From: Clostridia bacterium
Lineage (GTDB): Bacteria; Bacillota_A; Clostridia; Christensenellales; Aristaeellaceae
NCBI GenBank assembly: GCA_017518705.1
Contig: JAFWUC010000055.1
Coordinates: 1-28,800, forward strand
Reading direction: 5' to 3'
DNA: 28,800 bases
Positions 2,534 to 26,461 of this stretch are shown one piece after another. Within the stretch, counting starts at the first letter, position 1. The number at the start of each line of letters is the position of its first letter. The translations under genes and the position numbers were made by a program. Below the pieces are notes generated by a model. It saw nothing but the letters and a program-made list of their open reading frames with translations. It was not told the origin of the DNA and did not search any database.

Positions 2534-3310
2534 GTGCTGGCGGGAGAGCGCAGGGAAAGCATACTTACGAGCCTGAATACTCAGGGACAGGTGACTGTGG
2601 GCGAACTGGCTCGCCGCTTTCGCGTAAGCGAGGAGACAGTGCGCCGGGACCTGGAAGAGCTTGAGAAGCAGGGGCTTGCCAGGCGCGTGCACGGAGGCGC
2701 GATGACGGAGGGCAAGACCCGCCTGGAGACTCCCTACGACACCCGCAGGCGCACCAATGTCGCCTCCAAACAGCTTATTGCCCGCCTGGCCTCGGAGCTG
2801 GTCAGGGACGGGGAATACCTTATGATGGATGAAAGCTCCACCTCGTTCTATCTTGCCACCCAGCTTAAGGGTCTCAAAAACCTGACGGTCATCACCAATT
2901 CCATAGAGATAATCGGAGAGATCAGCCACGTGGAGGGCTGGACGGTCATGTGCACCGGGGGAGTGAAGCGTTTCAGCGCGCCCTCCTTTGCCGGGCATGT
3001 GGCCGAAAGCATGGTGTCGGGCTATCACGTGGACAAGGCGATCATTTCCTGCGACAGCGTCAGCCGGGAAGCGGGCTTTACCGACCGGCACGAGGACACT
3101 GCCCTTATCAAGCGCGCCATGATGCGCAGCGCGCGCCAGGTGGTGCTGCTGTGCGACCACACCAAGCTGGACCGGACCGCGTTCGCGAGGATCGGAAGCC
3201 TGAACGAGATCGACTATTTTGTGACCGACGCGCCCCTTGATGCCCAGTGGCGGGAAACGCTCCTCGCCCGGGGCGTAAAGCTAATCTGCCCGGAGGAGGA
3301 GATCAAATGA
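2534..3310 (+). CDS. DeoR-family transcriptional regulator
   Basis: A sugar-phosphate-responsive repressor type, 258 residues. The N-terminal winged helix-turn-helix (about residues 5-56) holds the family pattern VTVGELARRFRVSEETVRRD and ends in RVHGGA. The rest is the DeoRC sensor domain, with SKQLIARLA, TVITNS, CTGGV and, near the end, a VLLCDHTKL stretch. This domain normally binds a phosphorylated sugar. I start at the GTG at 2534 because GGAGGG (2521-2526) lies seven bases upstream; the in-frame GTG at 2519 overlaps that site and has none of its own. Its stop overlaps the next start (ATGA), so it is the first gene of the operon and very probably regulates it. The effector cannot be named, but by analogy is a sugar or polyol phosphate made in the pathway. 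Confidence 0.92.
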   Translation: MLAGERRESILTSLNTQGQVTVGELARRFRVSEETVRRDLEELEKQGLARRVHGGAMTEGKTRLETPYDTRRRTNVASKQLIARLASELVRDGEYLMMDESSTSFYLATQLKGLKNLTVITNSIEIIGEISHVEGWTVMCTGGVKRFSAPSFAGHVAESMVSGYHVDKAIISCDSVSREAGFTDRHEDTALIKRAMMRSARQVVLLCDHTKLDRTAFARIGSLNEIDYFVTDAPLDAQWRETLLARGVKLICPEEEIK

Positions 3311-4353
3311 ACCTGTCACCGCTTATCTATTTTTCCCGCCTGTACGGCGCGAACCCCAAGCTTGTATGCTGCGGAGGCGGCAACACCTCCATGAAGGAGG
3401 GCAACGTGATGTACGTGAAGGGTTCGGGCACCTCCCTTAAGGACGCGGTTACCGAGACCTTTGTGGGCATGGACAGGGAGAAGCTGCTCAAAATGCTGGA
3501 CGAACCCTATCCCGCGGACGATAAGGAGCGGGAAGCCAAGTTCGTCAGCGACTGCATGGCGGCCCGGCTGCCCGGTGAGGAAAACAAGCGGCCCAGCGTC
3601 GAAGCGCTGCTGCACGCGCTGTTTCCCCAGAAGTTCGTGCTGCACCTGCATCCCACCCTCGTGAACGGGCTCACCTGTTCGCAGGACGGCGAAGCCTGGT
3701 GCGAAAAGCTGTTCGGCAAAAGCGTGATATGGGTGAGCGCGTGCAAACCCGGCTACACTTTGGCCAAACTGATGAAGGACGTGTTCGACAGCGCCGACAG
3801 GCCGATCAAAACCGTGCTGCTGGAGAACCACGGCGTGTTTTTCGCCGCCGACACGGTCGAGGACCTGGCGACCCACTTAAACGGCATGCTCAATGCCATC
3901 GCTTCCGTGGCGAAGGAGGCGCCCTCCGATGAAGGGGAGACTTTTTCGCCGTTTGCAGAGAAGCTCAGGGAGGTAAGCGGCAAGGCGGAGGTGCGCTTTA
4001 CGGGCAGCCCGCTCGCCAAACACTTCGCCTCTGATATCGGGACCGCGGGCAAGGTCATGAAGCCGTTCAATCCCGACGAGATAGTGTACTGCGGCGCGGG
4101 AATGGACTTTGCCGAAAGCGCCGGCGGCGTCACCGCCATAAAGTCCAACGTGCTTATACTCAAAGGCGAGGGCGTGTTCACGTTCGGGGATACGCCCAAA
4201 GCGGCGGACAACTGCATGGCGCTGGTCAAGGACTCCATGGCGATAGCCTGGTACGCGGGCTATTTCGGGGGCGAGAAGCCCATGAGCAGGGAACTTGTGG
4301 ACTTTATAACCAATTGGGAAGTCGAAAGCTACAGAAAAAAAGTAGTCAAATAA
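3307..4353 (+). CDS. Class II aldolase/adducin-family sugar-phosphate aldolase (YuxG N-half-like)
   Basis: A 348-residue zinc aldolase of the RhaD/FucA superfamily, expected to cleave a ketose phosphate into dihydroxyacetone phosphate and an aldehyde. Visible motifs are GGGNTS (23-28), KGSG (38-41), RPSVEALLHA (95-104), the metal-binding HLHP (113-116) and ENHG (173-176). The RPSVEALLHALFP...HLHP stretch resembles the N-terminal half of the bifunctional YuxG/RhaEW-type protein (rhamnulose-1-phosphate aldolase fused to an SDR) more than short RhaD or FucA enzymes. The ATG overlaps the DeoR stop by four bases and has GGAGGAGGA (3292-3300) upstream. The next gene is an SDR, so the pair looks like a split version of that fusion. 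Substrate is uncertain: rhamnulose-1-P, fuculose-1-P or another ketose-1-P are all possible. Confidence 0.85.
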   Translation: MNLSPLIYFSRLYGANPKLVCCGGGNTSMKEGNVMYVKGSGTSLKDAVTETFVGMDREKLLKMLDEPYPADDKEREAKFVSDCMAARLPGEENKRPSVEALLHALFPQKFVLHLHPTLVNGLTCSQDGEAWCEKLFGKSVIWVSACKPGYTLAKLMKDVFDSADRPIKTVLLENHGVFFAADTVEDLATHLNGMLNAIASVAKEAPSDEGETFSPFAEKLREVSGKAEVRFTGSPLAKHFASDIGTAGKVMKPFNPDEIVYCGAGMDFAESAGGVTAIKSNVLILKGEGVFTFGDTPKAADNCMALVKDSMAIAWYAGYFGGEKPMSRELVDFITNWEVESYRKKVVK

Positions 4354-4365
4354 GGGGGAAACATC

Positions 4366-5238
4366 ATGACGCTTGATGAAGCGAAACTGTACGCGGCTCA
4401 GCATGTGCACGAGAGGCCCGCGACTGCCGGACGCCTGGCGGGCAAGATCGCCATCGTTACCGGCGCGGCCCAGGGCTTCGGCTACGGCATAGCCAAGGAG
4501 ATGTTGAACGAAGGCGCCTGCATAATGGTGGCGGACCTTAACGAGGCGCTGGCCAAGACCGTTTCCGAGGAATTCGGCGAGCACGCCTCCTATGTGAAGG
4601 TGGACGTGAGCGACACCGCCAGCGTGGAGGGCATGGTGATAAAGACCGTGGAGACCTTCGGCGGGCTCGACATATTCGTGTCCAACGCGGGCGTCGCCAT
4701 CGCGGGCAGCTTGGAAGAGATGGTGCCGGAGAAGTTCGACTTCGTGACCAAGATCAACTACAAGGGCTATTTCCTGTGCGCCAAGTACGCTTCCGCCATC
4801 ATGAAGGCGCAGTACGAAGCGGATCAGAGCCTGTTTTTCGATATCATCCAGATCAACTCCAAGAGCGGCCTCGAGGGCAGCAAGAACAACTTCGCCTACG
4901 CGGGCGGCAAGTTCGGCGGCATAGGTCTCACCCAGTCCTTCGCCATGGAGCTGGCGCCCTGGAACATCAAGGTGAACGCCATCTGCCCCGGCAACTATTA
5001 CGACGGACCCCTGTGGAGCGACCCGGAAAAGGGCCTGTTCGTGCAGTACCTTAAGGCGGGCAAGGTGCCCGGCGCCCAGACGGTGGAGGACGTAAGGAAG
5101 TTCTACCTGTCCAAGTCCCTGATCAAGCGGGGCTGCCTGCCCAGGGACGTGGCAAAGGGCGTATGCTACCTGGTCGAGCAGGAGTACGAGACCGGCCAGG
5201 CGCTGCCCATAACGGGCGGCCAAGTGATGCTGTCTTAG
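4366..5238 (+). CDS. Short-chain dehydrogenase/reductase (YuxG C-half or sorbitol-6-P dehydrogenase-like)
   Basis: An NAD(P)-dependent oxidoreductase of 290 residues with a classical SDR fold. It has TGAAQGFG (32-39) for the dinucleotide, NAG in SNAGVAIAG, a serine in INSKSG and the catalytic YAGGK (Tyr-x3-Lys). The first 25 residues precede the Rossmann fold and may be a remnant linker. It follows the aldolase by 12 bp with AAGGGGG as ribosome site. The family includes SrlD (sorbitol-6-phosphate to fructose-6-phosphate) and the lactaldehyde-dehydrogenase half of YuxG. In context it may oxidise the aldehyde freed by the aldolase or interconvert a polyol phosphate and a ketose phosphate. The two options cannot be separated from sequence alone. 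Confidence 0.85.
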   Translation: MTLDEAKLYAAQHVHERPATAGRLAGKIAIVTGAAQGFGYGIAKEMLNEGACIMVADLNEALAKTVSEEFGEHASYVKVDVSDTASVEGMVIKTVETFGGLDIFVSNAGVAIAGSLEEMVPEKFDFVTKINYKGYFLCAKYASAIMKAQYEADQSLFFDIIQINSKSGLEGSKNNFAYAGGKFGGIGLTQSFAMELAPWNIKVNAICPGNYYDGPLWSDPEKGLFVQYLKAGKVPGAQTVEDVRKFYLSKSLIKRGCLPRDVAKGVCYLVEQEYETGQALPITGGQVMLS

Positions 5239-5247
5239 GAGCAGACG

Positions 5248-6423
5248 ATGGACAAGAAACAGATCTTGGAGCTGCTTAACGCCCCGACGGCGGCGGAAAG
5301 GCTGGAAAACCTTAAAAAAGTGCTGGCGGAGGAGACCGAAAAGCCCGTGCTCCTGCCCCAGTTCGCCAACAACCATATACACACCACCTATTCCTTCAGC
5401 CCCTATTCTCCCACGGCGGCGGTGTACTTCGCCCGGGCGGAAGGCCTGAACACCTGCGGGATAATGGATCACGACTCCATATCCGGCGCGAAGGAATTCA
5501 GGAAAGCGGGCGCGATCGCGGGCATGGGCACTACCTGCGGCTTCGAGGGCAGGGTGAGCTTAAAGGGCACTCCCTTCGAGAGCCGCCGGCTCAACCACCC
5601 GGACCAGGCGGGCGCGGCTTACATGGCGTTCCACTCCATTTCCCGCGAGAGTTTCGACAAGGCGAGGGACTGCTTAAGACCGCTGGTGGAAAAACGCAAC
5701 GCGCGCAACCGCCTCATGGTCGATAAAATAAACGCCGAGATGGCCTTCAGCGGCATCTCCATCGACTTTGACCGGGACGTTTTGCCGCTTTCCCGGTACG
5801 ATGACGGCGGTTCCGTGACCGAAAGGCACCTGCTGTACGCCTTAAGCCTCAAGATAATAGAGAGGGTAGGCAGGGAGAACGTGCTTTCCTTCCTGAAAGA
5901 CGAGCTCAGGATCACGCCTTCCGCCAAGGTCGCGGGGTGGCTGAGCGACGCCCAGAGCCCGCACTTCGCCTACGACCTGCTGGGAGTGATGAAGAGCGAA
6001 CTGAACGCCAGGGTGTATATCCCCGCGGACGAGGAAATGATGACTCTGGACGAGGCGGTCGCTTTTGCCAACGATATCGGAGCGATACTCTGCTACGCCT
6101 ACCTGGGCGACGTGGGGCAGAGCGTCACGGGCGACAAAAAAGCCCAGACGTTCGAGGACGCGTATCTGGAAGAGCTGCTGAGTTTCCTCAGGCTCAGGGG
6201 AGTCGGGGGCGTGACCTTCATGCCCAGCCGCAACACCCCCGCGCAGCTGGAAAGGCTGATGGGCCTGTGCGACAAATACGGCTTTACGCAGATCTCCGGC
6301 GAGGACATCAATTCCTCCCGCCAGAGCTTCATCTGCAAAGAGCTGGAAAAGCCGGAGTTCCGCCACCTGGTGGACGCGGCATGGATGCTTGTAAACCGAG
6401 AGAAACGGGAGGATGAGGAATGA
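5248..6423 (+). CDS. PHP-domain metal-dependent phosphoesterase
   Basis: A 391-residue protein with a polymerase-and-histidinol-phosphatase fold. Metal ligands seen are NHIHTTYS (His43, His45), MDHDS (Asp74, His75), Glu100 in GFEGR and Asp near 353 in GEDIN. It is longer than TrpH/YciV-type enzymes (about 290 residues), with an inserted helical section around residues 110-240. The segment CYAYLGDVGQSVTGDKK has Tyr where many PHP enzymes have a ligand His, which may be normal in this subfamily. AGGAG overlaps the preceding stop, and the stop overlaps the next ATG (ATGA), so it is translated with its neighbours. A role in removing phosphate from an intermediate is inferred from context; no specific substrate is known. 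Confidence 0.8.
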   Translation: MDKKQILELLNAPTAAERLENLKKVLAEETEKPVLLPQFANNHIHTTYSFSPYSPTAAVYFARAEGLNTCGIMDHDSISGAKEFRKAGAIAGMGTTCGFEGRVSLKGTPFESRRLNHPDQAGAAYMAFHSISRESFDKARDCLRPLVEKRNARNRLMVDKINAEMAFSGISIDFDRDVLPLSRYDDGGSVTERHLLYALSLKIIERVGRENVLSFLKDELRITPSAKVAGWLSDAQSPHFAYDLLGVMKSELNARVYIPADEEMMTLDEAVAFANDIGAILCYAYLGDVGQSVTGDKKAQTFEDAYLEELLSFLRLRGVGGVTFMPSRNTPAQLERLMGLCDKYGFTQISGEDINSSRQSFICKELEKPEFRHLVDAAWMLVNREKREDEE

Positions 6424-7685
6424 AGACCACAGCGGTAAGGCTTCACGGGAAGCAGGATCTGAGGCTGGACAGCTTTGAGCTGCCCGCGCTTCAGGAGGAC
6501 CAGATACTGGCAAGAGTGGTGTGCGACTCCATCTGCATGTCCACGTACAAGTGCGCCATGCAGGGCGAGGAGCACAAGCGCGTGCCCAAGGACGTAAAGG
6601 ACAACCCCATCATCATGGGCCACGAGCTCTGCGGCGAGATAATCGAAGTGGGCGCGAAGTGGCAAAACGAGTACAAGGCGGGCCAGCGCTTCGCCATCCA
6701 GCCCAACATCAACTACAAGGGCACCATGTGGGCGCCGGGCTACTCCTACAGGACCATCGGCGGGGACGCCACCTACATCATAATCCCCAACGAGTTCATG
6801 GAAGAGAAGTGCCTGCTGCCTTACGCGGGCGAAAACTATTTCGGCGCGGCGCTGTCGGAGCCGCTCAGCTGCGTGGCGGGCACGTTCAAGGCCATGTACC
6901 ACACCACCAACGGCGTGTACGAGCACAAGATGGGCATCAAACAGGGCGGAAAGATGGCGCTTCTGGCCAGCGTGGGCCCCATGGGTCTGGCTGCCATAGA
7001 CTACATCATCCACACGGACAGGCGCCCGACGCTGCTCACCGTCACCGATATCGACCAGGCCAGGCTTGACCGGGCGGCCCGCATCTATACCAAGGAAGAG
7101 GCCGCGAAGTGGGGCATTGAGCTGCATTACGTGAACACCGCGTGCGAGAACCCCGTGCAGGTGCTTATGGACATCAGCGGCGGCGAAGGCTACGACGACG
7201 TGGTGTGCTTTGCCCCCGTGACCGCGGTTGTGGAGCAGGCGGACCAGATACTGGGCCGCGACGGCTGCCTCAACTTCTTCGCGGGTCCCGCCAGGAAGGA
7301 CTTTTTCGCGAAACTGAATTTCTATAACGTGCACTATTCCTCCACCCACATCTGCGGCACGTCCGGCGGCAATACCGAGGACATGGCGGAATGCCTGAAG
7401 ATGATGGGCGAAGGCAGGCTCACCCCCGCGGCGCTGGTCACTCACGTCGGCGGTCTTGACGCGGTGATCGACACCACGCTCAACCTGCCCTCCATCCCCG
7501 GCGGGAAAAAGCTCATCTACACCCACATCCGCATGCCCCTGACCGCCATAAGCGAGTTTGAGGAAAAGGGCAGGACGGATCCCATGTTCAGGGAACTGGC
7601 AAAACTGGTAAGCGAGACCAACGGACTTTGGAACAGCAAAGCCGAAGAATATCTGTTAAAAACGCTCAGCAAGGAGGACGAGTAA
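6420..7685 (+). CDS. Zinc-dependent medium-chain dehydrogenase, L-sorbose-1-phosphate reductase (SorE)-like
   Basis: An oxidoreductase of 421 residues. The start MKTTAVRLHGKQDLRL, the CDSICMS segment (Cys39), NPIIMGHELCGEI (GHE 67-69), LSEPLSCV, SVGPMGLAAIDY (nucleotide-binding loop), LNFFAGP, GTSGGNTEDM and GGKKLIYT match SorE of Klebsiella closely as I recall that sequence, including length (about 410). SorE reduces L-sorbose-1-phosphate to glucitol-6-phosphate; this protein probably acts on a similar ketose or polyol phosphate. The ATG overlaps the PHP stop by four bases, and its own TAA shares a base with the next ATG (TAATG). Together with the SDR gene it could isomerise one ketose phosphate to another through a polyol phosphate, as SorE and SrlD/SorD do in sorbose use. 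Confidence 0.85.
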   Translation: MKTTAVRLHGKQDLRLDSFELPALQEDQILARVVCDSICMSTYKCAMQGEEHKRVPKDVKDNPIIMGHELCGEIIEVGAKWQNEYKAGQRFAIQPNINYKGTMWAPGYSYRTIGGDATYIIIPNEFMEEKCLLPYAGENYFGAALSEPLSCVAGTFKAMYHTTNGVYEHKMGIKQGGKMALLASVGPMGLAAIDYIIHTDRRPTLLTVTDIDQARLDRAARIYTKEEAAKWGIELHYVNTACENPVQVLMDISGGEGYDDVVCFAPVTAVVEQADQILGRDGCLNFFAGPARKDFFAKLNFYNVHYSSTHICGTSGGNTEDMAECLKMMGEGRLTPAALVTHVGGLDAVIDTTLNLPSIPGGKKLIYTHIRMPLTAISEFEEKGRTDPMFRELAKLVSETNGLWNSKAEEYLLKTLSKEDE

Positions 7686-8947
7686 TGGCAAAGGCAGTCA
7701 TAATGCCCAAGGCGGGCATTACAGTCGAAAGCTGCATCATCGGCAAGTGGCTCAAAAACGTAGGCGACGAGGTCAAGGTAGGGGACATTTTATACACCTA
7801 CGAGACCGACAAGGCGTCCTTTGAGTGCGAAAGCACCGAGGAAGGCACGATCCTGGCCATATTCTTTAACGACGGGGACGAAGTGCCCTGCTTTACCAAC
7901 GTATGCGCCATAGGCAAGCCCGGCGAAAACTTCGACGAGCTCAAGCCCGCCGGCGCGGCTGCCGCGGAAGCACCCAAGGCGGAGGAAAAAGCGCCCGAAG
8001 CGCCCGCTGCCCAGGCGGAAGCCAAGCCCGCCGCCCAGTCTACCGCGAAGCCCGGGGACGAGATAAAGGTGTCTCCCAGGGCCAGGACGCTGGCCGAAAA
8101 AGCCGGCGTGAACGCTTCCGACGCCACCGCCACCGGCCCCGACGGCAGGATAATCGAGCGCGACGTGAGAAAGCTCATGGAAGAGGGCGCGCCTGTCAAG
8201 GCGGAGCCCGCAAAAGCCCCCGCTGCCGAGCCCGCCAAGGCGGAGATCCCCGCTCCCGAGTTCGAGGACGTCAAGTTCTCCGGCATCAGGAAGGCTATCG
8301 CCCGCAGCATGACCCAGAGCCTGTCCACCATGGCGCAGCTCACCAACCACCACTCCTTCGACGCCACCGCCATCCAGGCGTTCCGCAAGGAATGCAAGGC
8401 CGCGGGCGGAGACGTGGGCGGCATCACCCTGGGCGACATGGTGCTTTACGCCGTGTCCCGCACGCTGCTCGCCTTCCCGGACCTGAACGCCAACATGGTG
8501 GACGACACCACCCTGCGCCGCTTCAAGCACGTGAACCTGGGCGTGGCCGTGGATACTCCCAGAGGCATTATGGTGCCCACCATCTTTAACGCCGATACCA
8601 AGAGCCTGCTGGAGATCAGCAAAGAGGTCAAGACCCTGGCCGAGGCCGCCCGCAGCGGCGCCATCAGCCCCGACCTGCTCACCGGCGGCAGCTTCACCGT
8701 ATCCAATCTGGGCAGCACGGGCGTCGAGATGTTCACTCCCGTCATCAATCCGCCCCAGACCGCCATACTGGGCGTGTGCGGCATCACCCAGAGGGTCAGG
8801 GAAGAGGGCGGCCAGATCAAGCTGTATCCCGCCATGGGCCTGAGCCTCACCTACGACCACAGGGCGGTGGACGGTTCTCCCGCCAGCAAATTCGTCAAGG
8901 AACTGTGCCAGAACCTGGAAAAGTTCACTCTGCTTCTGGCAAAGTAA
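7685..8947 (+). CDS. E2 dihydrolipoamide acyltransferase of a 2-oxoacid dehydrogenase complex
   Basis: The core of the complex, 420 residues: it takes the acyl group from E1 on a swinging lipoyl arm and passes it to CoA. Domain order is one lipoyl domain (2-77, ETDKAS with the lipoylated Lys43), an Ala/Pro/Glu-rich linker (about 85-130), an E3-binding domain (SPRARTLAEKAGVN...GRIIERDV), a second linker, and a catalytic domain from about residue 197 ending in the active-site motif YDHRAVDG. I use the ATG at 7685 (AAGGAGGACGAGTA upstream, TAATG overlap) rather than an in-frame start further up that lies inside the SorE-like gene. A single lipoyl domain fits acetoin, branched-chain or small pyruvate dehydrogenases of Gram-positives. 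Acyl specificity is not readable. Confidence 0.94.
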   Translation: MAKAVIMPKAGITVESCIIGKWLKNVGDEVKVGDILYTYETDKASFECESTEEGTILAIFFNDGDEVPCFTNVCAIGKPGENFDELKPAGAAAAEAPKAEEKAPEAPAAQAEAKPAAQSTAKPGDEIKVSPRARTLAEKAGVNASDATATGPDGRIIERDVRKLMEEGAPVKAEPAKAPAAEPAKAEIPAPEFEDVKFSGIRKAIARSMTQSLSTMAQLTNHHSFDATAIQAFRKECKAAGGDVGGITLGDMVLYAVSRTLLAFPDLNANMVDDTTLRRFKHVNLGVAVDTPRGIMVPTIFNADTKSLLEISKEVKTLAEAARSGAISPDLLTGGSFTVSNLGSTGVEMFTPVINPPQTAILGVCGITQRVREEGGQIKLYPAMGLSLTYDHRAVDGSPASKFVKELCQNLEKFTLLLAK

Positions 8948-8959
8948 AGGAGATAAAGC

Positions 8960-10327
8960 ATGGACGCATTTGATCTTATCGTTGTGGGCGGAGGCCCGGG
9001 CGGATATCTTGCCGCCGAAAGAGTGGCGCAGGGCGGCCTGAAGGTGTGCCTGTTCGAGAAAAGGGCGCTGGGCGGCGTGTGCCTTAACGAGGGCTGCATC
9101 CCCACCAAGACCCTGCTCAATTCCGCGAAACTCTACCGCCACGCCACCGAGAGCGCCGCTTTCGGCGTAAAGAGCGAGAATGTGACCTTTGACCACGCCC
9201 AGGTGATAAAGCGCAAGGCCAAGGTGGTAAAGACCCTGGTGAGCGGCGTGGGCATGACCATGAGCGCCAACAAGATAAACGTTGTGAGCGCTTTGGCGGA
9301 AGTCAAGGGCAAGCAGGACGGCAAGTTCGCCGTGGAAGCCGAAGGCAAGACCTATCTGGCTGATCGGCTCATACTGGCGCTGGGTTCCGAAGCGGCGGTG
9401 CCGCCGATCCCCGGCGTCAAGGAAGGCGTGGAGAGCGGCTTCGTGATGACCAACCGCGAGATCCTGGACGAGACCCAGCTGCCCAAGGCGCTGGCCGTGA
9501 TCGGCGGCGGCGTCATCGGGCTTGAGATGGCCTGCTACTTCGCCAGCGTGGGCGTAAAGGTCACCGTTATCGAAATGCTGGACAAGATCGCCGGCGCGAC
9601 CGACCGTGACGTGTGCAAGGTGCTGCAGGCCGAGTACGAGAAGCGGGGCATGGAGTTCAAACTCTCCGCCAAGGTGCTTTCCGTGAAGCCCGGCGCAGTG
9701 GTCTATGAGGACGCTGCCGGACAGCACGAGTGCCCCTGCGACAAGGTGCTGCTCAGCGTCGGCCGCCGCGCCGCCACGAAAGGCGCGGGGCTTGAGAGCC
9801 TGAACCTGGAGATGAACCGCGGCGCCATCGTCACCGACGAGACCCTCGCCACCTCCGTGCCCGGCGTCTGGGCGGTAGGCGACTGCAACGGCAAGCTGAT
9901 GCTGGCGCACACCGCGTACAGGGAAGCCGAAGTGGCCGTGAACAATATCCTGGGCAAAAAGGACCGGATCAACTACAACTCCATCCCTTCCGTCATCTAC
10001 ACCGATCCCGAGGTCGCCAGCGTGGGCTACACCAAGGAAGCCGCCGAAAAGGCGGGCCTGAAGGTCAGGGAAGTCAACGTGCCCATGCTCTACGCGGGCA
10101 GGTACGTGGCCGAAGTGGACGCGGGCAAGGGCTTCTGCAAGCTGGTGCTGGACACGGACAAAAACCGCCTGGTGGGCTGCCACATCGTGGGCTCCTACGC
10201 CAGCGAGATGATCCTGTCCGCCGCCATGATGGTGGACACCGAGCTGCCGCCCGAGCGGCTCAAGAAGTTCGTATTCCCGCATCCCACCGTATGCGAAGTC
10301 ATCAGGGAAGCCATATTCAAACTGTAA
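8960..10327 (+). CDS. lpdA: E3 dihydrolipoyl dehydrogenase
   Basis: A flavoprotein that reoxidises the dihydrolipoyl arm of E2 and reduces NAD+, 455 residues. It has the FAD-binding GGGPGG (10-15), the redox disulfide GGVCLNEGC (Cys41, Cys46), the NAD-binding GGGVIGLEMA, the second FAD motif VWAVGDCNG and the dimer-interface active-site HPTVCE (His441, Glu446). It has no N-terminal lipoyl domain, unlike the E3 of some acetoin and pyruvate complexes. It follows E2 by 12 bp with AAGGAG as ribosome site. The full set of motifs makes the call secure. Confidence 0.95.
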   Translation: MDAFDLIVVGGGPGGYLAAERVAQGGLKVCLFEKRALGGVCLNEGCIPTKTLLNSAKLYRHATESAAFGVKSENVTFDHAQVIKRKAKVVKTLVSGVGMTMSANKINVVSALAEVKGKQDGKFAVEAEGKTYLADRLILALGSEAAVPPIPGVKEGVESGFVMTNREILDETQLPKALAVIGGGVIGLEMACYFASVGVKVTVIEMLDKIAGATDRDVCKVLQAEYEKRGMEFKLSAKVLSVKPGAVVYEDAAGQHECPCDKVLLSVGRRAATKGAGLESLNLEMNRGAIVTDETLATSVPGVWAVGDCNGKLMLAHTAYREAEVAVNNILGKKDRINYNSIPSVIYTDPEVASVGYTKEAAEKAGLKVREVNVPMLYAGRYVAEVDAGKGFCKLVLDTDKNRLVGCHIVGSYASEMILSAAMMVDTELPPERLKKFVFPHPTVCEVIREAIFKL

Positions 10328-10348
10328 TCAAAGAAAGGGGTTTTTACC

Positions 10349-12826
10349 ATGCCTAAGTCATTATACTACGGCCCGGACGAGATCAGAGCCAAAAGCACTA
10401 TCCACTTTACCGACATCCCCGTAAACGCCTACTCCAAGACCGTACAGGAGGAGAGGGCGAACTTCTCCGATGACGAGCTGCTGCGCATCTACCGCGACAT
10501 CACCATCCTGCGCGAGTTCGAGAGCATGCTCACCTCCATCAAGACCCAGAAGGTGTACAACAACGTGGAGACCACCTATCCCGGCCCCGCCCACCTGTCC
10601 GTGGGCCAGGAGGCCGCGTGCGTGGGCCAGGCTTATCTGATGACCCCCAACGATTATCAGTTCGGTTCCCACAGGAGCCACTCCGAGATACTGGCCAAGG
10701 CGCTGTCCTCCATCCAGAAGCTGTCCGATGACGAACTGCTCAAGATAATGGAAAGCTTCCTGGGCGGCGCGACCCTAAGGGCCGTTGAGAAGATGGGCAA
10801 GACCGACAGCGTCAAGGAGCTGGCCATCCGCTTCATCCTTTACGGCACACTCTCCGAGATCTTTGCCCGCAAGACCGGCTTCCACATGGGTCTGGGCGGC
10901 AGTATGCACGCCTTCTTCCTGCCCTTCGGCGTGTATCCCAACAACGCCATCGTGGGCGGCAGCGCTCCCATCGCCACCGGCGCGGCGCTGTACAAGAAGT
11001 GCAACGACAAGAAGGGCTTCGTGGTCTGCAACATCGGCGACGGTTCCCTGGGCTGCGGCCCCGTGCTGGAAGCGCTGAACTTCGCCTGCATGGACCAGTT
11101 CCACACCCTGTGGGGCGACGACGGCCGTGAAGTGAGCGGTCTGCCCATCCTGTTCAACATCTTCAACAACGGCTACGGCATGGGCGGCCAGACCAAGGGC
11201 GAGACCATGGCCTACGACATGCTGGCCAGGCTGGGCGCGGGCTTTACCCCCAACCAGATGCACTCCGAGCGCGTGGACGGCTTCAATCCCCTCGCTGTCA
11301 TCGACGCCATGCGCAGGAAGCTGGAGATCCTCAAGAGCGGCGACGGCCCCGTGCTGCTGGATACCCTTACTTACCGCTTCTGCGGCCACAGCGTGTCCGA
11401 TCAGAACGCCTACCGCGAGAAGGACGAGATCAACGACTGGATGGCCGTGGATCCCATCATCACCTACCGTCAGAGCCTGGTGGAAGCCGGCGTCGCCAAG
11501 GACGACAAGTTCGAGGAGATCCTGGCCGAGACTAAGGAGCGCATGACCAACATCTGCCGTCACGCCGCGGACAAGGAGTTCAGCCCCTACGCCGACATGA
11601 CCGCCGATCCCCTGGTCGTGGAGCGCCTGATGTTCTCCAACGAAAAGGTCAACAGCTTCGGTGACCAGGAAAGTCGCGTGCTGGCTCCCAAGGAGGAGTG
11701 CCCCCGCGTGCAGCAGATCGCCGGCAAGAGCCGTTCCGCCTTCGACGAGACCGGCAAGCCTGTGAGCAAGATGAAGACCTTCAACATCAGGGACGCCATC
11801 TTCGAGCCCCTGATCGACAAGTTCTACGAGGATTCCACCCTGGTCGCCTATGGCGAGGACGTAAGGGACTGGGGCGGCGCGTTCGCCGTGTACCGCGGAC
11901 TGCCTGACGTGCTCCCGCACTCCCGCCTGTTCAACGCCCCCATCAGCGAAGCCTGCATAGTGGGCAGCGCGGTGGGTTACGCCATGTGCGGCGGCAGAGC
12001 GGTGGTAGAGCTCATGTACGCGGACTTTATCGGCCGCGCGGGCGACGAGATATTCAACCAGATGTCCAAGTGGCAGGCCATGAGCGCCGGCATCCTCAAG
12101 ATGCCCGTGATCCTGCGCGTGTCCGTGGGCAGCAAGTACGGCGCCCAGCACTCTCAGGACTGGACCAGCCTGTGCGCCCACATCCCCGGACTTAAAGTCT
12201 GCTTCCCCGCTACTCCCTGGGAGGCCAAGGGCCTGATGCAGACCGCCCTGGACGGCACCGATCCCGTGGTGTTCTTTGAGAGCCAGAGGATCTACGACAT
12301 GGGCGAAATGTTCCACGAGGGCGGCGTGCCCAAGGAGAAGTACTCCATCGAGATCGGCGACGTGAACGTGATCCAGGAAGGCAAGGACGTGACCATCCTG
12401 ACCGTGGGCGCGGCGCTGTACAGGGCCATGGACGCGGCCAAGGAACTGAAGGAAAAGTACGGCATGGAGGCCGAGGTCATCAACCTGCACTCCCTGGTGC
12501 CGCTGAACTACGAGCGCATCATCGAGTCCGTGAAGAAGACGGGCCGCGTGGTGCTGGTGTCCGACGCGTGCCAGAGGGGCAGCTTCCTGAACGACGTTGC
12601 GGCCAACATCACCGAGCTGGCATTCGACTATCTGGACGCGCCCTGCGTGGTGGTAGGCGCCCGCAACTGGATCACCCCGCCCTTCGAGTTCGACAGCTAC
12701 TTCTTCCCGCAGGCCAAGTGGATCATCGACGCGATCCACACCCGCATCGTGCCCCTGCCGGGATATGTGAACGAGACCCAGCCCTCCGACGTGGAAATGA
12801 TCCGCAGGGCGAAGGCCGGCGTTTAA
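10349..12826 (+). CDS. Fused E1 alpha-beta subunit of a 2-oxoacid dehydrogenase (thiamine diphosphate enzyme)
   Basis: Decarboxylates a 2-oxoacid (or cleaves acetoin) and loads the lipoyl arm of E2. The 825-residue chain joins two normally separate subunits: alpha (about 1-450) with the ThDP motif GDGSLG (from 230) and NNGYGMGG (from about 273), plus SHRSHSE and GHSVSDQNAYR; then beta (475-825, MKTFNIRDA onward) with AYGEDV, NAPISEACIVGSAVGYA, GAQHSQDW and a C-terminal transketolase-like domain. The alpha part has an insertion of about 50 residues between SHRSHSEIL and EIFARKTGF, and a longer GDG-to-NN gap (about 40 residues against about 27) through FHTLWGDDGREVSG. AAAGGGG (10334-10340) sits eight bases before the ATG. 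Similar fusions are often annotated as branched-chain (2-oxoisovalerate) E1, but pyruvate or acetoin remain possible. Confidence 0.92.
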   Translation: MPKSLYYGPDEIRAKSTIHFTDIPVNAYSKTVQEERANFSDDELLRIYRDITILREFESMLTSIKTQKVYNNVETTYPGPAHLSVGQEAACVGQAYLMTPNDYQFGSHRSHSEILAKALSSIQKLSDDELLKIMESFLGGATLRAVEKMGKTDSVKELAIRFILYGTLSEIFARKTGFHMGLGGSMHAFFLPFGVYPNNAIVGGSAPIATGAALYKKCNDKKGFVVCNIGDGSLGCGPVLEALNFACMDQFHTLWGDDGREVSGLPILFNIFNNGYGMGGQTKGETMAYDMLARLGAGFTPNQMHSERVDGFNPLAVIDAMRRKLEILKSGDGPVLLDTLTYRFCGHSVSDQNAYREKDEINDWMAVDPIITYRQSLVEAGVAKDDKFEEILAETKERMTNICRHAADKEFSPYADMTADPLVVERLMFSNEKVNSFGDQESRVLAPKEECPRVQQIAGKSRSAFDETGKPVSKMKTFNIRDAIFEPLIDKFYEDSTLVAYGEDVRDWGGAFAVYRGLPDVLPHSRLFNAPISEACIVGSAVGYAMCGGRAVVELMYADFIGRAGDEIFNQMSKWQAMSAGILKMPVILRVSVGSKYGAQHSQDWTSLCAHIPGLKVCFPATPWEAKGLMQTALDGTDPVVFFESQRIYDMGEMFHEGGVPKEKYSIEIGDVNVIQEGKDVTILTVGAALYRAMDAAKELKEKYGMEAEVINLHSLVPLNYERIIESVKKTGRVVLVSDACQRGSFLNDVAANITELAFDYLDAPCVVVGARNWITPPFEFDSYFFPQAKWIIDAIHTRIVPLPGYVNETQPSDVEMIRRAKAGV

Positions 12827-13792
12827 GTGTCACTGATCTATACAGCCCCGGGAACGGACGCGAGGGAGAATCTCGCCCTGGACGAGTTTTTCCTGAACGC
12901 TCTGCCCCCGGGGCAGATTTTACTCTTCTTCTACATAAACCGCCCTTCCGTTATCATAGGGCGCAACCAGAACCCGTACCTGGAGTGCGACATAAGCCGC
13001 CTGAAAAGGGACGGGGTAATACTGGCGCGCCGCGTGTCGGGGGGCGGCGCGGTGTATCATGACGAAGGCAACCTCAATTATTCCTTCCTGGCGCACGAGA
13101 GCGTGTACGACGATGGCAGACAGACGCGCATCATCCTCGACGCGCTGAAAGCGCTGGGCCTTGAAGCCGAGGTCACCGGGCGCAACGACATCTGCCTGGA
13201 TGGGCTCAAGGTCTCCGGCACCGCCTTCGCGAAAAGAGGCTTGAACCGCATGCGCCACGGCACGCTGCTGGTGGACGCTGACTTAGGCGTGCTTTCGGAC
13301 TATCTCAAGCCTTCGCCCCTGAAGCTTGAGGCAAAGGGGATAAAGTCCGTGCGCTCCCGGGTGGGCAACCTGAAAGAAAAAGCCCCCGATATAACGGTGA
13401 GCGGGCTGAAAGCAGCCATAATCCGGGAATTTGAGGCGGCGTACGGCAAGGCGGAGGAGTTTTCGCTGACCGGCGGGCATGAGGACGAGATGGGCAGCCT
13501 ATTGGGCAAGCATTATTCGGAGGAATGGATCTATGGGCAGACGCCCGCGTACGACGTAAAGCTGGAGACCAGGCTCACGTGGGGGCTCGCGCAGCTGTGC
13601 TTCAAGGTCAAAGAGGGCAGGATAACAGACTTCGGTCTGTTTACTGACAGCCTGGATACCGAAGCGGCGGAGAAAATATATCCTTTGCTTATAAATAAGC
13701 CATTCGGCAGGGACACGGTCGTGTCCTCGCTTGCCGAAGGCGACGAAAACGCCCGGGAACTGGCCCGGGCGCTGAGTGAAATGGCGTTTTAG
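12827..13792 (+). CDS. lplA: Lipoate-protein ligase (LplA family)
   Basis: Attaches lipoate to the lipoyl lysine of E2 by way of lipoyl-AMP, 321 residues. The signature RRVSGGGAVYHD (68-79) and the later DGLKVSGTAF loop with the catalytic lysine are present. A C-terminal accessory domain (about 240-321, DVKLETRLTWGLAQLCFKVKEGRI...) is also present, as in long LplA enzymes that activate and transfer in one protein. The start is a GTG that directly abuts the E1 stop, with a weak GAAGG site at 12811-12815, so it probably relies on coupling. It is the last gene of the operon and presumably serves the E2 encoded five kilobases upstream. Confidence 0.92.
   Translation: MSLIYTAPGTDARENLALDEFFLNALPPGQILLFFYINRPSVIIGRNQNPYLECDISRLKRDGVILARRVSGGGAVYHDEGNLNYSFLAHESVYDDGRQTRIILDALKALGLEAEVTGRNDICLDGLKVSGTAFAKRGLNRMRHGTLLVDADLGVLSDYLKPSPLKLEAKGIKSVRSRVGNLKEKAPDITVSGLKAAIIREFEAAYGKAEEFSLTGGHEDEMGSLLGKHYSEEWIYGQTPAYDVKLETRLTWGLAQLCFKVKEGRITDFGLFTDSLDTEAAEKIYPLLINKPFGRDTVVSSLAEGDENARELARALSEMAF
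13746..13770 (-). terminator. Minus-strand terminator inside the 3' end of lplA
   Basis: Read on the minus strand, GCCCGGG (13770-13764), a six-base loop and CCCGGGC (13757-13751) are followed by GTTTTC. On the plus strand there is no T-tract right after the hairpin. It is placed 29 bp beyond the stop of the last minus-strand gene (13799), as expected for the end of that operon. Confidence 0.6.
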
Positions 13793-24757: not shown

Positions 24758-24808
24758 ACTTCTGTTAAAAACGGGGCGCAAGCCCCTGAACTTATGGAGG
24801 CGTTTTTT

Positions 24809-26341
24809 ATGAAGAAGCTTATTTCCCTGGTCCTGGCGCTGGTAATGCTGGCCGGCGTGGCCGCTGTGGGTGAGAGCTTCGCCGACTCTTACGACATCAC
24901 CGTATGGGTCGCCGAGGAGATCAAAGACCTTACCGCGCAGCAGATCGAGGCGTTCAACAGCAACAACCAGTACGGCATCAAGTTCAATCCTACCATCGAA
25001 GCCGTTTCCGAAGCCGTCGCCGCTGACAACATGGTCAACGACGTGAGCGCGGGCGGCGACATCTTCTGCTTCCCGCAGGATCAGTTCGCCCGTCTGGTAA
25101 AGGCCGGTGCTCTGTCCAAGCTGGGCGTTGCGGCGAGTGAAAAGGTCTCCGCCGAGAACGCTGCCGGCGTTGTCGTGGCTGCCAAGAGCGGCGACGCGCT
25201 GTACGCGTATCCCCTGACCGCCGACAACGGCTACTTCATGTTCTACGACAAGAGCGTCATCCCCGAGGAAGACATCGACTCTCTGGAAGCCCTGATCGCC
25301 GACTGCGAAGCCGCCCAGAAGTATTTCGCCTTTGAGATGCAGACCTCTGCCTGGTACCTGGCGTCCTTCTTCTTCGGCACCGGCTGCGTGAGCGAGTGGA
25401 CCACCGATGACGCGGGCACCTTCATTTCCGTGCGCGACACCTTCATCAGCCCCGAGGGCCTCATCGCCGTCAAGGGCATGGAGAAGCTGGTAAAGAGCCC
25501 CTTCCACCTGTCCTCTTCCAAGGCTGACTCCTTCGAGAGCAACGCCGCCGTCGTAGTGACCGGTATCTGGGACTACGAGCTGGCCAAGCAGATCCTGGGC
25601 GACAACCTGGGCGTCACCGACCTGCCTTCCTTCACTGTGGACGGCGTCGAGTACCACATCGGTTCCTTCAACGGCTGCAAGCTCATGGGTGTAAAGCCCA
25701 GCAACGATCCTTACCGTCAGGCCGCGCTCCACTTCCTGGCTCAGTATCTGACCGGCGAAGAGTGCCAGATGCAGCGCTTTGAGGCCAAGAGCTGGGGTCC
25801 CTCCAACCTGGTCGCCCAGTCTTCCGAAGCCGTTCAGGCCAACCCCGGCCTGGCTGCTCTGCTCAAGCAGGCTCCCTATTCCGTGCCTCAGGGCCAGATC
25901 CACGGTTCCTGGTGGGGAATCGCCCAGGTCATCGCTGACGACGTGAAGCTCGCCACCGACGAAGCCGGCCTGCAGGCCGCCCTGGACAACTACCAGGCCA
26001 AGATCGAAGAGCTGTTCACCCTGGACAACACCGCGCTGCTGTTCGTAGGCGCGTGGAACGGCTGGAACAACGCCGACACCGACAAGGCATTCTACCTGGC
26101 CAGCAAGGGCGACGGCACCTACGCGCTGACCTTCGACGTGCCCCAGAGCGATTACATGGGCGGCCGCGTGGTCAATCCCGGTTCCTGGGACACCGACAAG
26201 GGCTTTGCTCAGGTGACCGAAGGCGCCGAGCTGATCAAGGACCTGGGCGCTGACAACCCCGACAACAACATCGTGTTCGCCGAAGCGGGCAACTACACCA
26301 TCACCTGGGACGGCGAGGCGTTCAGCATCGTTAAGAACTGA
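24809..26341 (+). CDS. Maltose-type extracellular solute-binding protein with C-terminal carbohydrate-binding-like module
   Basis: Captures a sugar outside the membrane for the permeases that follow, 510 residues. The N-terminus MKKLISLVLALVMLAGVAAV is a Sec signal, probably cut after ESFA; no lipobox Cys is present, unusual for a single-membrane bacterium. Residues about 30-400 are a MalE-type fold (YDITVWVAEEIKDLTAQQI, DNGYFMFYDKS, VVVTGIWDYELAK). Residues about 408-510 are extra: FVGAWNGWNNADTD, DGTYALTFDVP and a closing AGNYTITWDGEAFSIV look like one SusE/SusF-type or related starch-binding beta sandwich. I start at 24809 because GGAGG (24796-24800) lies eight bases upstream; the ATG at 24794 overlaps that site. 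Codon choice (many CTG, GGT, CGT, GCT) suggests high expression. Ligand probably a maltodextrin-like glucan. Confidence 0.88.
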   Translation: MKKLISLVLALVMLAGVAAVGESFADSYDITVWVAEEIKDLTAQQIEAFNSNNQYGIKFNPTIEAVSEAVAADNMVNDVSAGGDIFCFPQDQFARLVKAGALSKLGVAASEKVSAENAAGVVVAAKSGDALYAYPLTADNGYFMFYDKSVIPEEDIDSLEALIADCEAAQKYFAFEMQTSAWYLASFFFGTGCVSEWTTDDAGTFISVRDTFISPEGLIAVKGMEKLVKSPFHLSSSKADSFESNAAVVVTGIWDYELAKQILGDNLGVTDLPSFTVDGVEYHIGSFNGCKLMGVKPSNDPYRQAALHFLAQYLTGEECQMQRFEAKSWGPSNLVAQSSEAVQANPGLAALLKQAPYSVPQGQIHGSWWGIAQVIADDVKLATDEAGLQAALDNYQAKIEELFTLDNTALLFVGAWNGWNNADTDKAFYLASKGDGTYALTFDVPQSDYMGGRVVNPGSWDTDKGFAQVTEGAELIKDLGADNPDNNIVFAEAGNYTITWDGEAFSIVKN

Positions 26342-26406
26342 CACACGAAACCCTTTAATCCTGAATCAAGTCAAGATTTGAAAGGCTTCTGACACGTATG
26401 GTATTA

Positions 26407-26438
26407 GGCCGGAGCCAGATCGAATTCTGGCCCCGGCC
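26407..26438 (+). promoter_or_regulatory. Intercistronic stem-loop between binding protein and permease genes
   Basis: GGCCGGAGCCAGA (26407-26419) pairs with TCTGGCCCCGGCC (26426-26438) with one mismatch, loop TCGAAT. No proper T-tract follows. Such hairpins between malE and malF in other bacteria protect the upstream mRNA and reduce read-through, so the binding protein is made in excess. Confidence 0.65.
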
Positions 26439-26461
26439 GTATTTACAAAGGGGCTATGCTT

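What the first reader, a model, noticed from the sequence alone, without database searches (positions are those of the whole stretch)
2534..13792. DeoR-led operon joining a split YuxG-like aldolase/SDR, a SorE-like dehydrogenase and a PHP phosphoesterase to a full 2-oxoacid dehydrogenase complex with its own lipoate ligase
Seen: nine same-strand genes with overlaps or gaps of at most about 21 bp and no internal terminator. Known: DeoR regulators respond to sugar phosphates; class II aldolases release DHAP plus an aldehyde; SorE and SrlD-type enzymes interconvert ketose and polyol phosphates; E1-E2-E3 make acyl-CoA and need lipoylated E2. Inferred: one pathway from a sugar or polyol phosphate through aldol cleavage to a 2-oxoacid or acetoin-like product and acyl-CoA. 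No kinase or transporter is included, so the entry substrate is unknown. I know of no described pathway with exactly this gene set.
Basis: partly seen in the sequence, partly recalled or inferred. Interest (0 to 1): 0.75.

Follow-up and report, generated by a model that had tools for sequence, protein, structure and literature searches.

The report
Rhamnose operon with acetoin-type dehydrogenase complex
A nine-gene bacterial operon that looked like a puzzle turns out to belong to a widespread gut-bacterial gene set linked to the plant sugar L-rhamnose, in which a dehydrogenase complex of the acetoin-splitting type may turn part of the sugar directly into acetyl-CoA by a route not yet described.

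Summary
In detail: nine co-directional genes (2534-13792), overlapping or at most 21 bp apart. The neighbourhood is not chance. In 80 related loci the same families recur in several orders, and in 148 sampled genomes fused E1, PHP protein and SorE-like dehydrogenase co-occur strongly (E1/PHP: 25 both, 6 and 4 alone, 113 neither). The missing substrate can be proposed: a rhamnulokinase-like kinase (E <= 1e-60; few reach the curated cut-off) is in 29 of 29 PHP-positive genomes and 48 of 119 others, and in several genomes that kinase, L-rhamnose isomerase (RhaA or RhaI) or rhamnosidases lie in the same gene runs. The E1 is unlike pyruvate E1: fused, with a ~45-residue insert, below every curated cut-off, with His-Arg as in an acetoin operon where 2-oxoacid E1s have Tyr-Arg. 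Most likely mechanism (inferred): rhamnulose-1-P is reduced (SorE-like) and re-oxidised at the other end (SrlD-like SDR) to a 1-deoxyketose-6-phosphate, which E1-E2-E3 cleaves to acetyl-CoA plus a tetrose phosphate. Roles of aldolase and PHP protein stay open. Main rival: lactaldehyde-lactate-pyruvate. A new variant of sugar catabolism; ten full-text searches found no such pathway.

The parts
2534..3310 (+). DeoR/GlpR-type regulator (HTH_DeoR + DeoRC sensor)
   Evidence: PF00455 1.9e-47, PF08220 1.2e-18; best NCBIfam AgaR 189.8 bits, below cut-off 260
3307..4353 (+). class II aldolase-like protein, distant relative of the aldolase half of YuxG/RhaEW
4366..5238 (+). short-chain dehydrogenase, SrlD (sorbitol-6-phosphate dehydrogenase)-like; the SDR half of YuxG-like fusions
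   Evidence: best NCBIfam sorbitol-6-phosphate dehydrogenase 214.9 bits (cut-off 307), RhaD_aldol-ADH 154.1; YAGGK motif seen in the translation
5248..6423 (+). PHP-superfamily metallo-phosphoesterase-like protein, function unknown
   Evidence: PF02811 22.9 bits, under the cut-off 26.4; model pLDDT 91.8; Foldseek best 3e0f 8.3e-12, then 3o0f, 2yb1, RNase AM; family in 29 of 148 class genomes
6420..7685 (+). zinc-dependent dehydrogenase of the SorE/YggP family (ketose-1-phosphate reductase-like)
   Evidence: 48.4-48.5% identity to three annotated sorE, 51.9-52.7% to five E. coli records (one annotated yggP), 98% coverage; C39, H68, E69 invariant in 21
7685..8947 (+). E2: one lipoyl domain, E3-binding domain, acyltransferase domain
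   Evidence: PF00364, PF02817, PF00198; lipoyl motif ETDKA
8960..10327 (+). E3 dihydrolipoyl dehydrogenase
   Evidence: TIGR01350 473.6 bits, above cut-off 408.8
10349..12826 (+). fused E1 alpha-beta, TPP-dependent type, His-Arg motif, ~45-aa insert
   Evidence: PF00676, PF02779, PF02780; no NCBIfam E1 model reaches its cut-off; alignment; His-Arg in all 57 readable fused-E1 matches, some held twice
12827..13792 (+). lipoate-protein ligase LplA
   Evidence: TIGR00545 310.3 bits, above cut-off 280; PF21948, PF10437

Best explanation
The operon is the lower part of an L-rhamnose (6-deoxyhexose) catabolic route whose isomerase and kinase are encoded elsewhere (other contigs in the close relative G001). 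Shown comparatively: the families belong together and go with rhamnulokinase-like kinases, L-rhamnose isomerases and rhamnosidases. Inferred mechanism: (1) L-rhamnulose-1-phosphate is reduced at C2 by the SorE-like enzyme to a 6-deoxyhexitol-1-phosphate; (2) the SrlD-like SDR oxidises C5, giving, numbered from the methyl end, a 1-deoxyketose-6-phosphate, CH3-CO-CHOH-R, a sugar-phosphate analogue of acetoin; (3) the acetoin-type E1-E2-E3 complex, its E2 lipoylated by the operon's LplA, cleaves C2-C3 to acetyl-CoA, NADH and a tetrose-4-phosphate. The DeoR protein would sense a sugar phosphate. The class II aldolase is either a side branch (DHAP + lactaldehyde) or an AraD-like epimerase on the route; the PHP protein is a phosphatase for an off-pathway or terminal sugar phosphate. 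My confidence: one functional module 0.95; rhamnose-linked 0.82 (lowered from 0.85 on re-reading, because most of the kinases fall below the curated rhamnulokinase cut-off); E1 acts on an acyloin/1-deoxyketose rather than on pyruvate 0.55; full three-step route as written 0.33.
For: Module: of 80 PHP loci, SDR lies within 300 bp in 67, ADH is held in 55, E1+E2+E3 in 23 (15 of the 42 with at least 9 kb on both sides), in several orders and strand arrangements; where E1 is unlinked it is usually still in the genome (39 of 42 genomes searched). Class sample of 148 (both, first only, second only, neither): E1/PHP 25,6,4,113; E1/ADH 28,3,12,105; PHP/ADH 27,2,13,106. Rhamnose: PHP/kinase (TIGR02627, E <= 1e-60) 29,0,48,71; E1/kinase 28,3,49,68; runs E2-E3-E1-DeoR-SDR-PHP-RhaB (L146), E2-E3-E1-DeoR-(3 other genes)-SDR-PHP-(1)-RhaB-Ald (L144; L145 the same from E3 on, E2 not covered), RhaA-Ald-RhaB-SDR-PHP-ADH (L147); RhaI-type isomerase between RhaB and Ald in L121 (2hcv 1.6e-96) and 88% identical in L123; GH78 in L058 and L061, GH106 in L121. 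E1 type: His-Arg as in an acetoin-type operon with 2,3-butanediol dehydrogenase, 57 of 57 readable matches; fused E1s of 51-54% identity on rhizobial-order plasmids next to a lipoyl protein, an alpha/beta hydrolase (acoC-annotated in one) and sugar genes. Enzymology: SDR fits SrlD best, ADH fits SorE; ADH-SDR-E2-E3-E1 without aldolase in L096, L097, L128. Chemistry: AceE mutants make DXP in vivo (PMC3424233, passages); [quoted passage not shown] entry only). A plasmid operon pairs a protein matching 3upl/3upy at 1e-202 with E1-E2-E3. PFOR (E <= 1e-100) is in 25 of 31 E1 genomes, as in 97 of the 117 others, so pyruvate has another route in most carriers.
Against: No substrate was tested. The route leaves D-threose-4-P or L-erythrose-4-P (worked out by hand), neither a standard intermediate, and gives no clear job to the aldolase or PHP protein. 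The aldolase keeps its conserved active-site residues, and Ald-SDR fusions argue for consecutive aldolase and SDR steps as reported for RhaEW. Only 13 of 148 genomes hold a kinase above the rhamnulokinase cut-off; of the 29 PHP genomes these are 4. Within the held flanks the kinase is near PHP in only 9 of 80 loci and RhaA in 5 of 80. 45 kinase-positive genomes lack both E1 and PHP, so rhamnose use does not need this module, and the rhamnose locus L061 lies in a genome without E1 (G032). 11 of 31 E1 genomes lack RhaA (two of these, G137 and G162, have RhaI; not counted over the sample). The window's own genome is not held. No shared operator was found between unlinked E1 and SDR operons (8 pairs). 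One Sphingobium E1 annotated as acetoin-type has Tyr-Arg, and the His/Tyr contrast rests on few non-fused E1s. Kinship was not corrected for in the Fisher tests.
Confidence: 0.4

Rival explanations
1. RhaEW-type route extended to acetyl-CoA: the aldolase splits L-rhamnulose-1-P into DHAP and L-lactaldehyde, the SDR oxidises lactaldehyde to L-lactate as the YuxG SDR half does, the ADH or another enzyme gives pyruvate, and the complex is a special pyruvate dehydrogenase.
For: Split and fused Ald-SDR are distant relatives of RhaEW, the fusions over nearly their whole length; RhaEW from Chloroflexus was shown to give DHAP and lactate, that of B. subtilis is needed for growth on rhamnose, and lactate dehydrogenases join rha regulons elsewhere (PMC3870299, passages); rhamnose link; aldolase residues intact; 6 of 31 E1 genomes show no PFOR.
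Against: The window proteins and six fused relatives scanned fall far below the RhaEW cut-offs; the SDR fits SrlD better; the ADH fits a ketose-1-P reductase family, not a lactate dehydrogenase; PFOR is in 25 of 31 E1 genomes; E1 carries the His-Arg motif; aldolase absent from three ADH-SDR-E2-E3-E1 runs; further class II aldolases exist in G001, G005 and G006, though not in G002.
Confidence: 0.25
2. The same chemistry on another substrate: the kinase neighbour acts on a different ketose (fuculose, a 5-deoxy- or 1-deoxypentulose, or sorbose-like sugar), and the rhamnose annotation is inherited from family names.
For: Most kinases are below the rhamnulokinase cut-off; in 71 of 80 PHP loci no such kinase is in reach; rhizobial relatives sit with PfkB- or XylB-type kinases and varied ABC transporters; 3 of 31 E1 genomes lack the kinase.
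Against: 29 of 29 PHP genomes hold the kinase; TIGR02627 is the best model for the five kinases scanned; two unrelated L-rhamnose isomerase families and two rhamnosidase families occur in the same runs.
Confidence: 0.19
3. Acetoin/2,3-butanediol metabolism: SDR and ADH are butanediol/acetoin dehydrogenases feeding a normal acetoin dehydrogenase complex.
For: SDR hits acetoin reductase models (TIGR02415 141.5 bits); E1 has the motif of an acetoin-type operon.
Against: Below cut-off (304.35 for TIGR02415); SrlD and SorE fits are better; aldolase, PHP and kinase linkage unexplained.
Confidence: 0.06
4. Two unrelated operons (sugar part and dehydrogenase complex) joined by chance in one clade.
For: In the Lachnospiraceae-type loci L011-L045 the two parts mostly lie apart.
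Against: Linked in 23 of 80 loci in several arrangements and co-occurring when unlinked (39 of 42; 25,6,4,113).
Confidence: 0.03

Closest known systems
RhaEW (YuxG) L-rhamnulose-1-P aldolase / L-lactaldehyde dehydrogenase
   Same: aldolase + SDR, fused in some relatives; rhamnose genes near by in several; DeoR-family regulators known for some rha regulons (PMC3870299, passages)
   Different: split here, far below family cut-offs, joined by SorE-like ADH, PHP and a lipoyl-dependent complex
Acetoin dehydrogenase complex (AcoABC-L)
   Same: TPP E1 with His-Arg motif, lipoyl E2, E3; predicted acyloin cleavage to acetyl-CoA
   Different: fused 825-aa E1 with insert, sugar-phosphate gene neighbours, own LplA, no butanediol genes
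SorE + SrlD/SorD sorbose-1-P to fructose-6-P conversion (recalled)
   Same: ketose-1-P reductase family with polyol-phosphate SDR family
   Different: goes with rhamnulokinase-like kinases, no PTS in the window; product proposed to go to E1-E2-E3
Plasmid clusters with fused E1 (R. leguminosarum pRLa11, R. johnstonii pRL8, Pleomorphomonas pSM30-1, A. tumefaciens pAt15955)
   Same: same fused E1 family (51-54%), sugar context
   Different: standalone lipoyl protein and alpha/beta hydrolase instead of E2; no aldolase, PHP or SorE annotated beside it
Pyruvate / branched-chain 2-oxoacid dehydrogenase complexes
   Same: E1-E2-E3 architecture
   Different: E1 below every cut-off; Tyr-Arg replaced by His-Arg; most carriers also hold PFOR

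Membership tests
RhaEW/YuxG | curated equivalog score (TIGR02632 cut-off 567.75) | tested here: not met
   window Ald 106.2, SDR 154.1; six fused relatives 250-305
RhaEW/YuxG | one polypeptide with both domains | tested here: not met
   split in the window; fused in 8 of 80 related loci
RhaEW/YuxG | encoded in rhamnose loci | tested here: inconclusive
   met for relatives such as L057, L058, L061, L069, L082, L144-L147; not within the window itself
RhaEW/YuxG | L-lactaldehyde oxidation | not testable with these tools
   needs assay
Acetoin dehydrogenase E1 | His-Arg where 2-oxoacid E1s have Tyr-Arg | tested here: met
   alignment, 57 of 57 readable matches; that this motif marks the substrate class is inference, and one annotated exception was seen
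Acetoin dehydrogenase complex | acetoin cleavage activity | not testable with these tools
   needs assay
Pyruvate dehydrogenase E1 | NCBIfam E1 alpha/beta cut-offs | tested here: not met
   NF006667 245.9 of 321; TIGR03182 201.8 of 393.85
Dihydrolipoyl dehydrogenase | TIGR01350 cut-off 408.8 | tested here: met
   473.6 bits
Lipoate-protein ligase | TIGR00545 cut-off 280 | tested here: met
   310.3 bits
SorE (L-sorbose-1-P reductase) | full-length homology to annotated SorE with conserved zinc-site residues (site recalled) | tested here: met
   48% over 98%; C39, H68, E69 invariant
SorE (L-sorbose-1-P reductase) | sorbose-1-P reduction | not testable with these tools
   needs assay
SrlD sorbitol-6-P dehydrogenase | NF009050 cut-off 307 | tested here: not met
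   214.9 bits, best model but below cut-off
PHP phosphoesterase | PF02811 gathering cut-off 26.4 | tested here: inconclusive
   22.9 bits, but the model matches PHP enzymes and the NHIH and DHD residues are invariant in 22

The most novel reading that the evidence does not exclude
A new deoxyhexose pathway in gut and rumen Clostridia: L-rhamnulose-1-P is turned end for end through a hexitol phosphate into a 1-deoxyketose-6-phosphate, and a lipoyl-dependent acyloin dehydrogenase complex (a sugar-phosphate acetoin dehydrogenase, whose E1 family is also on rhizobial plasmids) splits it to acetyl-CoA plus a tetrose phosphate, without lactaldehyde or 1,2-propanediol.
Probability: 0.33. Interest if true: 0.82.

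Novelty: new variant of a known kind. Interest (0 to 1): 0.62.

Why it matters
L-rhamnose from pectin and plant glycosides is an important gut and rumen sugar, and its textbook anaerobic fate is 1,2-propanediol and propionate (recalled). A conserved module in about a fifth of sampled class genomes (31 of 148 by E1) that sends rhamnose carbon to acetyl-CoA would change predictions of fermentation products. It also suggests that some complexes annotated as pyruvate or 2-oxoacid dehydrogenase cleave sugar phosphates, which cultured carriers and rhizobial plasmids would let one test directly.

Tried and rejected

Gene calls in fetched loci were my own scripts, first by ORF length (missed some genes under shadow ORFs), then by codon usage. 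The handle sets were copied by hand.
Full report
Observation. The DeoR gene most likely starts at GTG 2534 (GGAGG 8 nt upstream, read). The E1 is one fused alpha-beta protein of 825 residues. Upstream lie a Clp-type ATPase gene (cut by the window edge) and a precorrin methylmutase (CbiC) gene, downstream a convergent beta-lactamase-fold gene. Terminator-like patterns are below chance.

Conservation. A scan of one genome per species with an alignment of 22 PHP proteins found 356 encoding stretches, of which the best 80 were kept as loci L003-L082. Comparing the nine window proteins with these 80 shows the complete operon in the same order in seven loci (L003, L004, L006-L010; L010 cut at the contig end) and the same families in other orders: DeoR-Ald-SDR-PHP-ADH-E2-E3-E1-LplA with RhaA and RhaB divergent (L069), ADH-[Ald-SDR]-E2-E3-E1-LplA-PHP (L070), Ald-SDR-PHP convergent with LplA-E1-E3-E2-ADH (L053, L055), and LplA-E2-E3-E1-RpiR-Ald-SDR-PHP-ADH (L059, L060, L066). 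SDR is within 300 bp of PHP in 67 of 80 loci; in the held stretch ADH occurs in 55, an Ald match (25-89% identity) in 37, and E1+E2+E3 together in 23; among the 42 loci with at least 9 kb on both sides E1+E2+E3 are there in 15.

Co-occurrence. In 42 genomes taken from the 80 loci, 39 hold the fused E1 at E <= 1e-50, 38 with a full-length match and one in two frames; G011, G023 and G032 lack it. In 148 genomes drawn across the class of the close relative G001 (G001 included), E1 occurs in 31, PHP in 29, ADH in 40, RhaA in 53, a rhamnulokinase-like kinase (TIGR02627, E <= 1e-60) in 77, of which 13 genomes exceed the curated cut-off, and GH78 in 59. Tables as both, first only, second only, neither: E1/PHP 25,6,4,113; E1/ADH 28,3,12,105; PHP/ADH 27,2,13,106; PHP/kinase 29,0,48,71; E1/kinase 28,3,49,68; E1/RhaA 20,11,33,84; PHP/RhaA 19,10,34,85; PHP/GH78 22,7,37,82; E1/GH78 21,10,38,79 (Fisher p from 1e-18 to 8e-4). 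45 kinase-positive genomes lack both E1 and PHP. Kinship was not corrected for and contig breaks lower the counts.

Substrate. For the five kinases scanned next to SDR/PHP/ADH, TIGR02627 was the best model, two over the cut-off of 527.95 bits. In the 80 loci such a kinase is held in 9 and RhaA in 5 (L057, L058, L061, L069, L082); L147 adds RhaA-Ald-RhaB-SDR-PHP-ADH. In G137, which lacks RhaA, the gene between RhaB and Ald is an L-rhamnose isomerase of the P. stutzeri type, with an 88% identical copy in G162. GH78 (L058, L061) and GH106 (L121) rhamnosidases share the runs. Three genomes carry the kinase and the E1 complex in one gene run (L144, L146, and L145 as far as fetched). Against: L061, a clear rhamnose locus, lies in a genome without E1.

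E1. The window E1 falls below every curated E1 model. In an alignment with 16 other E1s, the position that is Tyr in R. phaseoli BCKDH, Sulfitobacter PDH and one Sphingobium protein (annotated acetoin-type, so it runs against the rule) is His in the window (GSHRSH), in the E. casseliflavus operon with 2,3-butanediol dehydrogenase, in a Thermus protein annotated acoA, in the rhizobial-order and Arthrobacter fused E1s and in both DXR-like operons. Of 59 fused-E1 matches in L003-L130 (some the same gene held twice, such as L003 and L101), 57 could be read there and all have His-Arg; two were fragments without the stretch. The clostridial and rhizobial-order fused E1s share an insert of about 45 residues absent from the others. 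In R. leguminosarum, R. johnstonii pRL8, Pleomorphomonas and Agrobacterium the fused E1 (51-54% identical, 96-97% coverage) is followed by a separate lipoyl protein and an alpha/beta hydrolase (annotated acoC in Pleomorphomonas), a sugar-binding or DeoR-type regulator and, variably, kinases, an isomerase and ABC transporters. In S. chiapasense an E1-E2-E3 operon begins with a protein matching 3upl/3upy at 1e-202 (recalled to be the Brucella DXR-like enzyme) and ends with a class II FBA. These contexts suggest 1-deoxyketose phosphates as E1 substrates. The reverse carboligation is documented: AceE mutants make DXP in vivo (PMC3424233, passages), and that paper cites formation of 1-deoxyketoses by pyruvate and acetoin dehydrogenases (reference entry only).

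Mechanism. SorE reduces sorbose-1-P to glucitol-6-P and SrlD oxidises glucitol-6-P at the other end (both recalled). Applied to L-rhamnulose-1-P (6-deoxy-L-fructose-1-P) the same two steps give 1-deoxy-D-sorbose-6-P or 1-deoxy-L-fructose-6-P, depending on the face reduced; acyloin cleavage gives acetyl-CoA and D-threose-4-P or L-erythrose-4-P (my own working). The SDR fits SrlD better than the YuxG SDR half (214.9 against 154.1 bits), and ADH-SDR-E2-E3-E1 stand as a run without aldolase in L096, L097 and L128 (in G014 a distant aldolase match lies beside PHP in L020). The weak points are the fate of the tetrose phosphate and the jobs of aldolase and PHP. A C4 epimerisation of the 1-deoxyketose would give D-erythrose-4-P; the aldolase superfamily includes such an epimerase (AraD), but the fold comparison does not separate it from aldolases. 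The lactaldehyde-lactate-pyruvate rival fits the aldolase better and fits the SorE-like enzyme, the E1 motif and the presence of PFOR (25 of 31 E1 genomes, 97 of 117 others) worse. G001, G005 and G006, but not G002, hold a class II aldolase protein with two Aldolase_II domains, 60-62% identical to the one inside the rhamnose operon of L058, so rhamnulose-1-P cleavage may be done elsewhere.

Verdict. The feature is real, conserved and rhamnose-linked; the individual families are known; the combination, the fused His-Arg E1 family and the proposed route were not found described in the searched papers. Interest 0.62; the bold reading has probability about 0.33.

Noticed in passing
L141:1283-9919 (S. 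chiapasense plasmid pB); L142:1391-7254 (Rhizobium sp. B21/90): Operon of sugar-binding regulator, DXR-like oxidoreductase (tested for L141 only), E1a, E1b, E2 (plus E3 and class II FBA in L141): candidate deoxyxylulose/methylerythritol catabolic operon.
   Followed up: partly
L131, L132, L133, L134: Plasmid clusters of Rhizobium, Pleomorphomonas and Agrobacterium with the same fused E1, standalone lipoyl protein, AcoC-like hydrolase and sugar genes; Agrobacterium adds a lipoyl synthase and a mannitol dehydrogenase.
   Followed up: partly
L001:10127-14240: E. coli SorE-like YggP lies between the cmt PTS genes and a GlpX-type phosphatase: a SorE-like enzyme beside a phosphatase, as with PHP here.
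   Followed up: no
L083, L084, L086, L088-L091: E2 matches repeat two or three times at the lipoyl end, so these E1 operons seem to have E2 with two or three lipoyl domains (one in the window).
   Followed up: no
L015, L017-L019, L034, L038, L039, L041: A class II aldolase of FucA-like size (144-266 aa as called; only the L018 copy was scanned, PF00596) lies just after PHP.
   Followed up: no
L049:7810-8946, L062:7942-9072: A ~378-aa gene sits between Ald and SDR; in L049 it is a GDSL-lipase-like protein (L062 not scanned).
   Followed up: no
window 24794-28003: Solute-binding protein and an ABC permease gene near the window's end; substrate not studied.
   Followed up: no
L135:1-4642: Arthrobacter plasmid: class II FBA, another fused E1 (33% identical), lipoyl protein and FGGY kinase in a row, followed by sugar transporter genes.
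   Followed up: no
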